NCBI GenBank assembly: GCA_027484825.1
Contig: JAIXSE010000001.1
Location: forward strand, 1-64,000
Direction of reading: 5' to 3'
Length of the DNA: 64,000 bases
Source of the DNA: Rubrivivax sp.
GTDB lineage: Bacteria; Pseudomonadota; Gammaproteobacteria; Burkholderiales; Burkholderiaceae_C
Both the position numbers and the translations under genes were made by a program. Below, piece by piece: positions 50,887 through 55,268 of the stretch; the stretch's first letter is position 1; each line of letters starts with the position of its first letter. A model generated the notes under the pieces. It was given only the letters and a program-made list of their open reading frames with translations. It was not told the origin of the DNA and searched no databases.

Positions 50887-51738
50887 TCACCCGCCGTCGC
50901 GCTCCACAGGACGCATCGGCCGGATCCTGCGAGGCTCCGTCGCCTCCGCCGCCAGCATGCCGCTCGTGCGCTCATTGGCTTGTGCAATCAGCGGCTCGAT
51001 CAGCGCCGCTTCCGGCAGATTGGCCCAGTATCGACGCGGCATTTCCTTCTCCATCATCGCCACCTTCAGCCGCGCCGGATTGAAGATGCTGCGGTAGTAG
51101 GTGAGCCAGAGCTCGGCCCCGGCATCCATCGGCGGCACGTCCTCGCGCCGACCGGCCGGTCCGGTGCTGAGCGACTGCCCATCCCAGGACAAGGTGCAGC
51201 GCGGCGTCAGGATGGCCCAGCGCATGTTGGCGAAGCGTCGCGCAAAGAAGGGGGCCGCTGCCTCCTCGACAAAGTGGGCCGGCTCGAACCAGGCGAGGTA
51301 CTGCTCCCCTTGATCGTCCTGCACCGGGAAAAAGCGCACGAAGGCATGCATCTTGTGGATGGCCCGGCGCACGTCGCGGGCCATGTGATCGGCCCGACGG
51401 CGCTCGGGATCGAGCGTGTCCATCCACACCGAGGGTGACTGCTTCAGTCGCCACAGCAGGCGGTACATCAGCGCAAAACGCTGGGGGTCGGTGTGCAGCA
51501 GGGCGGCATCGCACAGCCGCACAAAGCCGGCGGGGACGGTGAAGCGCGGCGCAGCCGCCGTGGCGGGGGTCGCTGGCGTGGTTATGTCCTCCGTCTGCGT
51601 GCCGCTGAACAGGTCGTCCGCCTGCTCGTCCGTGGCCCAGACCACCTGGTCGGGCGGGACTTCGGCCGCCACCAGTGCCCGCGCCTGGCGACGAAAGCCG
51701 GCCACGTCGGCCGGCCCTTGCAGGACCACGCGCCTCAT
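50887..51738 (-). CDS. DUF4130 / TIGR03915-type putative DNA-repair protein
   Basis: A 283-residue protein matching the DUF4130 domain, which in UdgX-type proteins precedes a uracil-DNA glycosylase domain. Diagnostic stretches are MRWAILTPRCTLSWDG, LWLTYYRSIFNPARLKV and MPRRYWANLPEA near the C-terminus. The glycosylase half is absent: the protein stops shortly after the linker. The ATG overlaps the stop codon of the upstream radical SAM gene by 4 nt, indicating coupled translation. The pair is a known partnership in bacteria, predicted to act in DNA repair or modification; the reaction is unknown. Confidence 0.88.
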   Translation of the reverse strand: MRRVVLQGPADVAGFRRQARALVAAEVPPDQVVWATDEQADDLFSGTQTEDITTPATPATAAAPRFTVPAGFVRLCDAALLHTDPQRFALMYRLLWRLKQSPSVWMDTLDPERRRADHMARDVRRAIHKMHAFVRFFPVQDDQGEQYLAWFEPAHFVEEAAAPFFARRFANMRWAILTPRCTLSWDGQSLSTGPAGRREDVPPMDAGAELWLTYYRSIFNPARLKVAMMEKEMPRRYWANLPEAALIEPLIAQANERTSGMLAAEATEPRRIRPMRPVERDGG

Positions 51739-53069
51739 GCGAAGAGGCCCAGTTGGACCGGTGCCTGGGCCTGGGCCTGGGCTTGGACTCGAACTTGAAC
51801 TTGTGGCTGAGGCTGTGCCTGGATCGCCGGAGCCGCCCACTGCCGCAGCAGATGCTCCCCCACGTCGCCGCGTGGCCGGTGGCCATCCACTTCCACAAAC
51901 GGCAGCACCTTGCGCAGCCCCACCTTCATCTGCTGCAGGTCTTCGGCACGGATGCGGCGCAGACGCCGCGCCTGCAGCAGCTTGCCCACCGACTCCACCC
52001 CCAGGCCCGGCACGCGCAGCAGCAACTCCTTGGGCGCCGCATTCAGGTCCACCGGGAACCGCTCCGGATGCGCGAGCGCCCAAGCGAGTTTGGGGTCCAC
52101 ATCCAGGCGCAGCAGGCCGGTCCCGTCGTCCACGATTTCCTCGTGGCCGAAGCCGTAGAAGCGCATCAGCCAGTCCGCCTGATAGAGCCGGTGCTCCCGC
52201 ACCAGCGGTGGCGCCTGCAACGGCAAGGCCCGGGACGCATCCGGAATGGGACTGAAGGCCGAGTAGTAGACACGCCGCATGCGGTAGGTGCTGTAGAGCG
52301 TGGAGCTGCTGCGGAGAATGCTGCGGTCATCGCTCCCATCGGCGCCCACGATCATCTGGGTGCTCTGCCCCGCTGGCGCAAAGCGCGGCGGCTTGGCGGG
52401 CCGAGCGGCCGCGCCGGGAATGACGCGGATGGGCACGGCGGCGGCAGACTTGCGCGCCTCCTTGGCATCGTCGATGTGCAGCTTGAGCCGGCCCATTGAG
52501 CGGCGGATGGCCACCCCGTCTTTCTCCGGGGCCAGTTGTTGCAGACCCTGCTCGGTCGGTAGTTCGACATTGATGCTCAGGCGGTCCGCATACCGGCCGG
52601 CGCGCTGCAGCAATTCCTCGCTGGCGTCAGGAATGGTCTTGAGGTGGATGTAGCCGCGAAAGTCGTGCTCTTCCCGAAGCACCCGGGCCACCTCGACCAC
52701 CTGCTCCATCGTGTAATCCGGGCTCTTGACGATGCCGCTGCTGAGGAACAGTCCTTCGATGTAGTTGCGGCGATAGAAATCCAGCGTCAGCGCCACCACT
52801 TCCTCCACCCGGAAGCGGGCCCGGGCCACATTGCTGGAGGCCCGGTTCACGCAATAGAGGCAGTCGTACTGACAGTGATTGGTCAGCAGAATCTTGAGCA
52901 GCGAAATGCAGCGGCCATCCGGCGCATAGCTGTGGCAGATGCCCATGCCTTCGGTGGATCCGATGCCCTTGCCCTTGGACGAATCGCGTTTGTCGGTGCC
53001 GCTGGAGGCACAGGAAGCGTCGTACTTGGCGGCGTCGGCCAGGATGGCCAGCTTGCGTTGGGTGTCCAT
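51735..53069 (-). CDS. Putative DNA modification/repair radical SAM protein with HhH
   Basis: A 444-residue protein of the TIGR03916 type. The radical SAM cluster motif CQYDCLYC has Cys66, Cys70 and Cys73, preceded by a Lys/Ser/Gly-rich leader with two further Cys (20, 45). A SAM-barrel follows, then a helix-hairpin-helix DNA-binding motif near LLLRVPGLGVESVGKLLQAR (about 350-370). The last 30 residues are a Gln/Ala/Val/Pro repeat tail. It is the first gene of the operon with the DUF4130 protein, and a LexA-like site lies 19 bp upstream of its ATG. A DNA-repair role is inferred from these features; substrate unknown. Confidence 0.9.
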   Translation of the reverse strand: MDTQRKLAILADAAKYDASCASSGTDKRDSSKGKGIGSTEGMGICHSYAPDGRCISLLKILLTNHCQYDCLYCVNRASSNVARARFRVEEVVALTLDFYRRNYIEGLFLSSGIVKSPDYTMEQVVEVARVLREEHDFRGYIHLKTIPDASEELLQRAGRYADRLSINVELPTEQGLQQLAPEKDGVAIRRSMGRLKLHIDDAKEARKSAAAVPIRVIPGAAARPAKPPRFAPAGQSTQMIVGADGSDDRSILRSSSTLYSTYRMRRVYYSAFSPIPDASRALPLQAPPLVREHRLYQADWLMRFYGFGHEEIVDDGTGLLRLDVDPKLAWALAHPERFPVDLNAAPKELLLRVPGLGVESVGKLLQARRLRRIRAEDLQQMKVGLRKVLPFVEVDGHRPRGDVGEHLLRQWAAPAIQAQPQPQVQVRVQAQAQAQAPVQLGLFA

Positions 53070-53088
53070 GGGAGTGTTGTCAAAACTG

Positions 53089-53104
53089 CTGGATGAATAT
53101 ACAG
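53089..53104. promoter_or_regulatory. LexA-like SOS box upstream of the radical SAM operon
   Basis: On the minus strand the site reads CTGTATATTCATCCAG, agreeing with the proteobacterial LexA consensus CTGT(AT)4ACAG at 13 of 16 positions and with both CTG/CAG half-sites intact at the correct 10-nt spacing. TATATT inside it could be the -10 hexamer, so repressor and polymerase would compete. It lies 19 bp from the start codon at 53069. Confidence 0.7.
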
Positions 53105-53250
53105 GCTTTGTCAGCTTGTTTGTGGCAGCAGCCCCCGGCGATGTGGGGATTCATCCGCATGTCTCCGCAATGACTCAGCATTCGCGCTGGCAGGCGTGGC
53201 GGTTGCCTGTGCAGAGCTCCCTCATTCCGCTCAACGGTCCCGGTGCCCTC

Positions 53251-54417
53251 ATGACGTCCACGCTGGCTCGAAATTACCAGTGCAGTTGCAGCAAGCCTGT
53301 GTTCTTCCGCAACTCTTCCTGCCTGTCCTGCGGATCGGCGCTGGGCTATGTGGCGGATGAAGGGGCGCTGCGGGCCTTGCGGCCTGCGCAGGCACCCGAC
53401 CGTTTTCATGTGGACGGACGACCGGCGGTGACCTACCGCCGCTGCCAGAACTTTTCCAGCGCCATTGGCTGCAACTGGCTGGTGCGCGATGACGGGAGCA
53501 CCACGGCACCGCTGTGCCTGAGCTGCCGCTTGAGCCGAACGATTCCCGATCTGTCCTACCCGGGCAATGGCGAGCTGTGGCGGCGTGTGGAGGCGGCCAA
53601 GCGTCGGCTGGTGTCCCATCTGCTGGGGCTGGGGCTTCCAGTGGTGCCCAAGGCGGATGACCCGCAGCGCGGTCTGGCCTTCGACCTTTTGCATTCGGAT
53701 CCGGGACGGCCCGTGATGACCGGTCATGCGGCTGGCGTCATCACCCTCAACATCGAAGAAGCAGACGATGCTTACCGGGAGCGGGCCCGCGCCCAGTTCG
53801 GGGAGCCCTACCGGACCCTGCTGGGGCATCTGCGTCACGAAGTCGGTCACTATTACTGGGACCGTCTGGTGGCGGACACCGAATGGCTGGCACCTTGCCG
53901 GGCGCTGTTTGGTGATGACCGCCAGGACTATGCCGCCGCTTTGAAGCGCCACTACCAGCACGGGCCGGTGGCCGGCTGGCAGCAGCGCTACATCTCCGCG
54001 TATGCGGGCGCGCATCCCTGGGAAGACTGGGCAGAGACCTGGGGGCACTACCTGCACCTGCGCGATACGCTGGACACCGCCCAGAGCTTCGGCCTGGTGC
54101 CGGATGCCCAGTGGCTGGAAGGTCATGAGGGCCCCGAGCGCCATGGGCCGAATGTCTCGCCCTTCAAGTTGGGTGACCTGTGGCAGGCTGATCACCGAAC
54201 GAGTGCGGAGTTCCTGGCGCTGCTGCACGACTGGGTTGCGGTGACCTGCGTGATGAATGAGATGTCCCGCGCGATGGGGCAGCCGGACTTTTATCCCTTC
54301 GTGCTGCCGGCCGCGGCAGTGGCCAAGCTGCATTTCATCCACTGCCTGATCGATGCGCAGGCGACTCACGCGGCGGGAACGGCGCCGGAGACGATGTCGG
54401 CGGGGGTGGCCGCATGA
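53251..54417 (+). CDS. Putative zinc-binding metallopeptidase with N-terminal zinc ribbon
   Basis: A 388-residue protein matching the zinc peptidase family PF15887. An N-terminal zinc ribbon has paired cysteines (CSC then CLSC near residues 11-29, further Cys near 72-93). A metallopeptidase domain has HEVGH (His196, Glu197, His200) and a downstream Glu/His-bearing DWAETWGHYLHLRD segment. The gene overlaps the transglutaminase start by 4 nt. This pair is often found with alpha-E and ATP-grasp proteins of a putative peptide-modification system, which are absent here. The ATG at 53251 starts the ribbon; upstream in-frame codons lie in the promoter region. Confidence 0.9.
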   Translation: MTSTLARNYQCSCSKPVFFRNSSCLSCGSALGYVADEGALRALRPAQAPDRFHVDGRPAVTYRRCQNFSSAIGCNWLVRDDGSTTAPLCLSCRLSRTIPDLSYPGNGELWRRVEAAKRRLVSHLLGLGLPVVPKADDPQRGLAFDLLHSDPGRPVMTGHAAGVITLNIEEADDAYRERARAQFGEPYRTLLGHLRHEVGHYYWDRLVADTEWLAPCRALFGDDRQDYAAALKRHYQHGPVAGWQQRYISAYAGAHPWEDWAETWGHYLHLRDTLDTAQSFGLVPDAQWLEGHEGPERHGPNVSPFKLGDLWQADHRTSAEFLALLHDWVAVTCVMNEMSRAMGQPDFYPFVLPAAAVAKLHFIHCLIDAQATHAAGTAPETMSAGVAA

Positions 54418-55268
54418 TCCGGATGCAACTGCATTTCGAGCTGGACTACCTGGTCCATGACGCCCGGGCCAGCCTGCTGTTCAACGTGCAGCCGGCGGTG
54501 ACGGCGCTCCAGCAGGTCTCGGAAGAGCGCATGGAACTCACGCCCGGCGCGGCCTGGCATGAGCGGGCGATGCCCGGCTCGCCGAACCGGCTGATCAGCG
54601 TGAAGGCGCCTGCGGGTCGGTTCCATCTGACCTACGACGCGGAGGTGACGGCCCAGCCGCTGGTGGAGCCGGCATCGGCCCTGATGGAGGCGGATGTGGC
54701 CGGACTGCCGCACGAGGTGCTGGGGTATTTGATGCCCAGCCGCTATTGCGAGTCGGACCGACTGATCAACTTCGCAGAAGCGACCTTCGGCCATCTGCCA
54801 TCGGGCTATGCACGCGTGGTGGCGGTGCGGGACTGGGTGCGCAAGAAGCTGCGGTATGCCAGCAGCGGCTCCACCACCCGGACCTCCGCGGTGGAGACGC
54901 TGACCGACCGGATCGGGGTGTGCCGGGACTTTGCGCACGTGATGATCGCTCTGTGCCGCGCCTTGAGCATTCCGGCGCGTTACGTCACCGGGACGGATTT
55001 CGGGGCGGATGCAGGCAAGCCGATGGACTTTCACGCCTATGTGGAAGTGTGGCTGGGCCAGCGCTGGTATGTGTTCGACCCGTCCGGGCTGGGGATTCCG
55101 ATGGGCTATCTGCGGATCGGCACCGGACGCGACGCAGCCGATGTGCCCTACGCCATGCTGTTTGGCGATGTGACGTCGGACTATGCGCCCTTGGTGCGCG
55201 TGACGGCGATGGAGGGCGCTGGGCTGGAGTTGCCACGGCATGTGGAGGAGGCGTTGTCGACGGTGTGA
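54414..55268 (+). CDS. Transglutaminase-like cysteine peptidase family protein
   Basis: A 284-residue protein with an N-terminal beta-rich domain (about 1-95) and a transglutaminase core with a complete Cys170-His207-Asp222 triad (GVCRDFAH, DFHAYVEVW, FDPSG). Such bacterial proteins act as proteases or amide-bond-modifying enzymes in the cytosol. Its ATG overlaps the metallopeptidase stop (ATGA), so the two are co-translated and probably act in one pathway. Confidence 0.92.
   Translation: MIRMQLHFELDYLVHDARASLLFNVQPAVTALQQVSEERMELTPGAAWHERAMPGSPNRLISVKAPAGRFHLTYDAEVTAQPLVEPASALMEADVAGLPHEVLGYLMPSRYCESDRLINFAEATFGHLPSGYARVVAVRDWVRKKLRYASSGSTTRTSAVETLTDRIGVCRDFAHVMIALCRALSIPARYVTGTDFGADAGKPMDFHAYVEVWLGQRWYVFDPSGLGIPMGYLRIGTGRDAADVPYAMLFGDVTSDYAPLVRVTAMEGAGLELPRHVEEALSTV

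What the first reader, a model, noticed from the sequence alone, without database searches (positions are those of the whole stretch)
53070..53110. LexA-type SOS box directly in front of a radical SAM/DUF4130 operon of unknown function
The 16-mer CTGTATATTCATCCAG (minus strand, 53104-53089) keeps both CTG/CAG half-sites and 13 of 16 consensus LexA positions, and lies 19 bp from the start codon. The operon encodes a radical SAM protein with helix-hairpin-helix and a DUF4130 protein overlapping by 4 nt. SOS control would be direct support for a DNA-damage role of this poorly understood pair, so far named only as putative DNA modification/repair.
Basis: partly seen in the sequence, partly recalled or inferred. 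Interest (0 to 1): 0.75.

Follow-up and report, generated by a model that had tools for sequence, protein, structure and literature searches.

The report
SOS-controlled, clamp-docking radical SAM repair pair
A two-gene bacterial operon of unknown function carries a conserved LexA-type DNA-damage switch in front of it, and its radical SAM enzyme ends in a peptide predicted to dock on the replication sliding clamp, so the pair is likely a DNA-damage repair system that works at the replication machinery.

Summary
The box is real: best LexA-type site in the window (24.0 bits, next 11.2) and second in the genome after lexA's own. It is conserved before this operon in 21 of 22 family genomes, 32 of 36 named beta loci and 12 of 14 further order genomes with canonical LexA. 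Five of six genomes without canonical LexA lack it; the sixth and two of the five carry their divergent LexA's motif instead. Alphaproteobacterial orthologues carry the alphaproteobacterial motif (27 of 28). SOS control is well supported by sequence, untested by experiment, and not wholly new: a 2021 paper reports it for what I take to be the same pair (COG1573-COG4277) in Bacteroidetes.

New here: a Q-x-x-L-F-type sliding-clamp motif near the C-terminus of the radical SAM protein (94 of 94 in one set, 19 of 19 and 20 of 22 in two others; QLGLF in the window); three extra cysteines kept in 93 of 94; and UdgX-type (self-crosslinking) glycosylases fused to DUF4130 in 59 of 80 named relatives, though not in the window. 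In Xanthomonadales the operon sits behind a non-LexA palindrome shared with uvrA and other repair genes. Lesion and chemistry remain unknown.

The parts
53089..53104 (-). LexA-type operator (SOS box) CTGTATATTCATCCAG, 19 bp before the rSAM start codon
51735..53069 (-). radical SAM protein, TIGR03916 family, 444 aa (stop included in coordinates)
52851..52874 (-). codons of CX3CX2C (C66, C70, C73), the SAM-binding iron-sulfur cluster motif
   Evidence: conserved in 94 of 94
52908..53012 (-). stretch holding the codons of C20, C45 and C54, proposed ligands of an auxiliary iron-sulfur cluster (inferred)
   Evidence: each kept in 93 of 94
51963..52046 (-). helix-hairpin-helix-like segment (residues 342-369), predicted DNA contact
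   Evidence: sequence; Pfam HhH domains on some relatives; no Pfam HhH hit on the window protein
51741..51755 (-). codons of C-terminal QLGLF (residues 439-443), predicted sliding-clamp-binding motif on a tail modelled with low confidence (probably disordered)
   Evidence: consensus
50887..51738 (-). DUF4130 / TIGR03915 protein, 283 aa, form without UDG domain; its start overlaps the rSAM stop by 4 nt
53251..54417 (+). divergent zinc-ribbon + Peptidase_Mx gene (start codon chosen by me); judged not part of the system: no match in the flanks held for the 101 other loci

Best explanation
The box is a conserved LexA-type operator, and the two-gene operon behind it is predicted to be repressed by LexA and likely induced by DNA damage, after which its radical SAM enzyme would dock on the replication sliding clamp through its C-terminal QLGLF peptide and likely process damaged bases together with DUF4130. 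Steps shown by sequence: the box; its conservation and co-variation with the type of LexA; the rSAM-DUF4130 order; the clamp-type motif; CX3CX2C plus three further conserved cysteines; UdgX-type glycosylases fused in 59 of 80 named relatives. Steps inferred: LexA binds the box and blocks transcription; RecA-driven LexA cleavage induces the operon; the QLGLF tail binds DnaN and brings the enzyme to stalled forks or gaps; the HhH-like segment holds DNA; the three extra cysteines hold a second iron-sulfur cluster; the radical chemistry acts on a damaged or modified base; DUF4130 is its obligate partner; where present, UdgX caps or removes uracil-type products. In the window's organism the UdgX step is absent or supplied by another protein.
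For: Box: 24.0 bits, next in the window 11.2; second among the genome's listed sites. Conservation, at least 13 bits: 21 of 22 family genomes and 32 of 36 named beta loci, against 2 of 1867 background windows; 12 of 14 further order genomes with canonical LexA. Co-variation with LexA: the one family genome without the box, G086, is the one of 22 without a lexA match; two more genomes without LexA over the cut-off lack it; three genomes of one family with a divergent LexA carry TGTACRTTCGTACA before that lexA and TGTACGWTCGTWCA before the operon. Alphaproteobacteria carry GTTC-N7-GTTC or its complement in 27 of 28, against 1 of 1079 background windows and 0 of 58 beta regions. Caballeronia and Cupriavidus carry CTGT-N8-ACAG, Paracoccus and Azospirillum GAAC-N7-GAAC. 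The box goes with this operon: 102 of 102 loci have rSAM and DUF4130 on one strand; only the window has the divergent peptidase in the flanks held. Clamp motif in the last 60 residues: 94 of 94 against 4.4% of shuffles, among them 13 distant copies; 19 of 19 further order genomes; 20 of 22 family genomes. Tail modelled at pLDDT under 50. QLGLF is the published E. coli Pol II clamp motif, QxxLF the general consensus. UdgX: GEQPG plus RGxxRxH loop fused to DUF4130 in 59 of 80 named loci; best solved match UdgX 6ail, E 7e-67.
Against: No binding, expression or phenotype data for this organism. Four of 36 named beta loci score below 13 (L037 6.6, L040 8.7, L059 10.9, L064 12.8; L040 still fits CTGT-N8-ACAG, L059 has a divergent-type LexA). 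Two of 14 order genomes with LexA lack the box (G188; G203, a split gene). Among six genomes without canonical LexA one, G202, reaches 14.2 bits, and three others reach 10.8-11.7. In the 15 gammaproteobacterial loci with upstream sequence no LexA box of the kinds sought is found. No sigma-70-like promoter was found around the box. The clamp motif is short; its pattern was set after I had seen the tails; two of 22 family proteins lack it (L012; L021, a split gene); no clamp complex was modelled; PMC12309361 notes that glycine at the third position, as in QLGLF, weakens binding in E. coli (passage). The DUF4130 fold has no significant match, and the rSAM model is of moderate confidence. No substrate is known. 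The genomes compared are related and the sets overlap.
Confidence: 0.68

Rival explanations
1. The operon is LexA-controlled but acts as a plain base-excision accessory: DUF4130 and UdgX-type glycosylases handle uracil put into DNA during SOS, and the radical SAM protein only matures or modifies that partner protein rather than DNA.
For: UdgX-type UDG fused to DUF4130 in 59 of 80 named loci; PMC8565304 proposes a UDG-based excision system (passage). Foldseek's top solved matches include maturases and protein or tRNA modifiers (MgmA, HydE, MiaB).
Against: The HhH-like segment and the conserved clamp-type motif point to DNA at the replisome. The pair persists without the UDG motifs in 21 of 80 named loci, the window's close relatives among them.
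Confidence: 0.2
2. A spore-photoproduct-lyase-like enzyme that reverses a UV photoproduct directly, as the SplB-like label in the literature suggests.
For: PMC3765255 describes DUF4130 as associated with SplB-like radical SAM photolyases (passage); SplB-type genes are reported under SOS in several groups (passages).
Against: NCBIfam gives TIGR03916 and only a weak HydE match, no lyase model. Three extra conserved cysteines. A fixed DUF4130 partner is not known for SplB (recalled).
Confidence: 0.12
3. The box serves the divergent Peptidase_Mx gene, or is a chance palindrome.
For: It lies in the intergenic region of two divergent genes.
Against: The peptidase was found beside the operon only in the window, while the box stays with the operon elsewhere. 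Chance is contradicted by the background.
Confidence: 0.03

Closest known systems
COG1573-COG4277 SOS operon of Bacteroidetes (PMC8565304), with earlier reports cited there for Verrucomicrobia and Alphaproteobacteria
   Same: A two-gene operon with a UDG and COG4277 (its identity with TIGR03916 recalled) under LexA-type motifs.
   Different: The window's copy has the canonical betaproteobacterial box and lacks the UDG domain. The passages that I read do not mention a clamp motif, and the word DUF4130 is not in that paper.
UdgX, self-crosslinking uracil-DNA glycosylase of Mycobacterium smegmatis (PMC10359453, PMC10776899)
   Same: The UDG fused to DUF4130 in relatives has GEQPG and an R-loop-type RGxxRxH motif; best solved match UdgX.
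   Different: The window protein has no UDG domain, and its genome has no TIGR03914 match over the cut-off, only a 153-bit match elsewhere.
SplB / spore photoproduct lyase and SplB-like SOS genes (PMC3323433, PMC3765255)
   Same: Radical SAM protein under reported SOS control, linked with DNA repair.
   Different: Different NCBIfam family, extra cysteines, fixed DUF4130 partner.
Clamp-docked polymerases (Pol II QLGLF, UmuC QLNLF; PMC3716654)
   Same: A clamp-binding peptide; QLGLF is the same peptide as in Pol II. That Pol II and UmuC are SOS-induced is recalled.
   Different: The protein is a radical SAM enzyme, not a polymerase; docking is predicted only.

Membership tests
LexA (SOS) regulon member | operator that fits the family's own LexA matrix | tested here: met
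   24.0 bits; second among the genome's listed sites
LexA (SOS) regulon member | operator conserved upstream of orthologues and tracking presence or type of LexA | tested here: met
   21 of 22, 32 of 36, and 12 of 14 with LexA; below 13 bits in 5 of 6 without canonical LexA
LexA (SOS) regulon member | LexA binding and induction by DNA damage | not testable with these tools
   needs gel shift and expression data
TIGR03916 / TIGR03915 pair | both proteins over curated cut-offs and adjacent | tested here: met
   565 and 208 bits; both on one strand in 102 of 102 loci
UdgX family | UDG domain with GEQPG and R-loop in the operon | tested here: not met
   window DUF4130 protein ends without UDG; the motifs are fused in 59 of 80 named relatives
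Spore photoproduct lyase (SplB) | match to a lyase family model | tested here: not met
   only TIGR03916 and a weak HydE match in NCBIfam at E 0.001 or better
Sliding-clamp (DnaN) clients | conserved QxxLF-type motif in an exposed or disordered segment | tested here: met
   94 of 94, 19 of 19, 20 of 22; tail 413-444 pLDDT under 50
Sliding-clamp (DnaN) clients | measured binding to DnaN | not testable with these tools
   no complex modelling or assay available
Radical SAM enzymes | CX3CX2C and Radical_SAM domain | tested here: met
   PF04055 34.8 bits, cut-off 29.5; CX3CX2C in 94 of 94
RecJ/DHH-Cdc45 fold for DUF4130 | shared fold | tested here: inconclusive

The most novel reading that the evidence does not exclude
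A radical SAM enzyme that rides the replication clamp: under SOS it is delivered by its C-terminal Q-x-x-L-F peptide to stalled forks or gaps and, with a second iron-sulfur cluster and DUF4130, chemically rewrites a blocking base in place, while fused UdgX caps uracil or abasic products. It would be a repair class distinct from excision, photolyases and translesion polymerases, wired again and again into each lineage's own damage regulon.
Probability: 0.42. Interest if true: 0.88.

Novelty: new variant of a known kind. Interest (0 to 1): 0.7.

Why it matters
The TIGR03916/DUF4130 pair has no known function, and the physiological role of UdgX is stated in print to be largely unknown (PMC10359453, passage). 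Operators that follow the type of LexA, together with a near-universal clamp-type peptide, place the pair in the SOS response and, by prediction, at the replisome. That turns an open annotation into tests that can be done: damage sensitivity of a deletion, DnaN binding, and a substrate hunt on clamp-loaded damaged DNA.

Tried and rejected

Literature: ten searches were answered. For a clamp motif in a radical SAM protein, one search found 27 papers with three of its five terms and listed 15; of these only PMC3765255 holds 'radical SAM'. DUF4130 occurs in one held paper, COG4277 in one. Three papers are not held and I saw nothing of them: Sanchez-Alberola 2015 (known from reference lists), Erill 2016 and Paes da Rocha 2008, the last two cited through PMC8565304.

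Full report
WHAT IS THERE. The minus-strand 16-mer CTGTATATTCATCCAG sits at 53104-53089, 19 bp before the ATG at 53069 of a 444-residue radical SAM protein. That gene's stop overlaps the start of a 283-residue DUF4130 protein by 4 nt. NCBIfam names them TIGR03916 (565 bits) and TIGR03915 (208 bits), both over their cut-offs. On the other side, in divergent orientation, lie a zinc-ribbon/Peptidase_Mx gene and a transglutaminase-type gene.

IS THE BOX MORE THAN CHANCE. I trained a matrix only on the best sites upstream of lexA (21) and recA (21) in 22 family genomes; all 42 sites were kept, the weakest being recA of the LexA-less G086 (9.4). The window box scores 24.0; the next best position in the 64-kb window scores 11.2. 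Among the own-genome places listed it ranks second: lexA's box (24.8) is above it and recA's (21.3) below, both training sites. The own lexA lies at C35:227697-228347 with its box in front.

CONSERVATION IN BETAPROTEOBACTERIA. The rSAM gene is patchy: 22 of 120 family genomes have it, and 22 of 399 order genomes exceed the family cut-off. Upstream of it a site of at least 13 bits is present in 21 of 22 family genomes and 32 of 36 named beta loci. The rate in background windows of the same loci is 2 of 1867, and in shuffles 5 of 1160. I assigned the 80 named loci to classes from their record titles (36 beta, 28 alpha, 16 gamma); L043 is titled only 'Proteobacteria bacterium'. The family and named sets overlap (some contigs have the same length, for example L026 with G077 and L051 with G105). 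The misses are L037, L040 (which still fits CTGT-N8-ACAG), L059 and L064.

THE BOX FOLLOWS LexA. The one family genome without the box, G086, is the only one of 22 without a lexA match. In 19 further order genomes, 12 of 14 with LexA over the cut-off have the box; the exceptions are G188 and a split gene, G203. Of the five others, G389 has no lexA match and G418 only a 22-bit one; they score 11.7 and 4.6. Three genomes of one family have a divergent LexA of 98-100 bits, under the cut-off. That lexA's own promoter carries TGTACRTTCGTACA, and the operon in the same genomes carries TGTACGWTCGTWCA. One of them, G202, reaches 14.2 bits with the canonical matrix and was counted against the hypothesis. 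The pooled Fisher test (33 of 35 against 1 of 6) still gives P = 1.6e-4, without correction for kinship.

OTHER CLASSES. In 28 alphaproteobacterial loci none has the beta box, but 27 have GTTC-N7-GTTC or its complement within 150 bp upstream, against 1 of 1079 background windows and 0 of 58 beta upstream regions. Paracoccus and Azospirillum plasmid copies have GAAC-N7-GAAC; Caballeronia and Cupriavidus copies have perfect CTGT-N8-ACAG. Two unrelated LexA motifs, and a third in the divergent group, before the same operon are the strongest sequence argument for SOS control.

XANTHOMONADALES. Of 16 gammaproteobacterial loci, 15 have upstream sequence, and none shows a LexA motif of the kinds sought. 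Nine carry an exact GTCTCA-N5-TGAGAC, 13 within two mismatches; no beta or alpha region has it. In 12 such genomes the exact pattern occurs at 27 places against 0 for the reversed control. Of 18 read loci with exact sites, by eye 7 face this operon, 5 a DEAD/DEAH-type helicase, 1 uvrA, 1 a PA0069-type radical SAM gene and 4 other genes. Profile scans of five proteins confirmed UvrA, RadA, NrdA and a PA0069-type fragment, and gave TIGR03817 as best match of a partial helicase, under its full-length cut-off; radA and nrdA have one-mismatch sites, of which each genome has several. lexA genes there mostly have other motifs (TTAGTAGT(A/T)(A/T)TACTACTAA or GGTGTACAAATGTACACC). One lexA-like gene of a Lysobacter MAG, L200, has a near match (GTCTCCATCCATGAGAC), so a link to a LexA paralogue is not excluded. 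This looks like a separate DNA-repair regulon; its regulator is unknown.

PROTEIN ANATOMY. In 102 of 102 loci the rSAM gene and DUF4130 lie on one strand; only the window has the divergent peptidase in the flanks held. The rSAM proteins end in Q-x-x-L-F (beta, gamma) or in QLGFGF, QMQLPF and QLSLL types (alpha) after a linker of variable length. With one pattern, set after I had seen the tails, the motif lies in the last 60 residues of 94 of 94 proteins (window, 80 named, 13 distant), against 4.4% of shuffled tails. It is in 19 of 19 order genomes and 20 of 22 family genomes (misses L012 and the split gene L021). The 13 distant copies come from Bacteroidota, Bacillota, Fusobacteriota, Gemmatimonadota and Pseudomonadota and from three fecal contigs labelled phage; identity to the window is 35-64%. 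The tail (413-444) is modelled with pLDDT under 50. Published consensus: QL[S/D]LF, more generally QxxLF (PMC12309361, passages). E. coli Pol II uses QLGLF (PMC3716654, passages), the same five residues as in the window.

CYSTEINES AND PARTNER. C66, C70 and C73 (CX3CX2C) are kept in 94 of 94. C20, C45 and C54 are each kept in 93 of 94. The exception was not named by the script; I take it to be the Gemmatirosa copy, the most distant. I infer a three-cysteine auxiliary iron-sulfur cluster, as in MiaB and LipA type enzymes (recalled). DUF4130 is modelled well (pLDDT 84.8) but matches no solved fold significantly. Counted by the GEQPG and RGxxRxH motifs, a UDG is fused to DUF4130 in 59 of 80 named loci (18 of 36 beta, 27 of 28 alpha, 14 of 16 gamma). 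These are UdgX marks (abstract start of PMC10359453 in the listing). The best solved match of that region is UdgX 6ail. The window's protein lacks the domain, and its genome has no TIGR03914 match over the cut-off.

MECHANISM. Shown by sequence: operator, conservation, motif, operon order. Inferred: repression by LexA, induction on damage, docking on DnaN, DNA contact by the HhH-like segment, radical chemistry on a damaged base with DUF4130. I cannot name the lesion.

WHAT IS KNOWN. PMC8565304 (passages) reports the COG1573-COG4277 operon in the SOS networks of Bacteroidetes and cites Verrucomicrobia and Alphaproteobacteria. [quoted passage not shown] PMC6595937 (passage) mentions, as data not shown, SOS boxes before DNA modification/repair and radical SAM genes in Acidovorax citrulli. 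PMC3323433 (passages) predicts splB under SOS in alpha- and betaproteobacteria. PMC9380542 (passages) lists a LexA-bound, mitomycin-induced radical SAM gene of Streptomyces whose family I did not test. PMC7739468 (passages) lists a radical SAM protein in LexA regulons of Gram-positive bacteria and Balneolaeota. So SOS control of the pair is not new as an idea. What these calls add is its broad betaproteobacterial support, the co-variation with LexA type, the clamp-type motif, the cysteine set and the UdgX link under SOS; apart from the searches named above I did not establish that each is unpublished.

Noticed in passing
L182-L199, L222-L231 (Xanthomonadales genomes): A palindrome GTCTCA-N5-TGAGAC fronts uvrA, a PA0069-type radical SAM gene, a DEAD/DEAH-type helicase and the rSAM-DUF4130 operon, and with one mismatch radA and nrdA; 27 exact places in 12 genomes against 0 for the reversed control. 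Possibly an undescribed DNA-repair regulon, with a regulator other than the usual LexA.
   Followed up: partly
L278-L280 and L247, L248, L250: A divergent LexA in a betaproteobacterial family that includes Methylovorus has TGTACRTTCGTACA before its own gene and a near-identical element before the operon.
   Followed up: partly
own genome G000 C32:147534, C35:82482, C35:132637, C6:28088: Other high-scoring LexA-type sites of the own genome (21-24 bits) near genes that I did not identify.
   Followed up: no
L232 (CAKLQH020000003.1): A record labelled Acinetobacter phage carries glyS and glyQ near the rSAM pair and looks like bacterial chromosome.
   Followed up: no
window 53251-55268: Divergent zinc-ribbon/Peptidase_Mx gene followed by a transglutaminase-type gene that overlaps it by a few bases; the peptidase was not found beside the operon in other loci.
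   Followed up: partly
L184 and L194: The same palindrome precedes a related protein of unknown family in two Lysobacter-type genomes.
   Followed up: no
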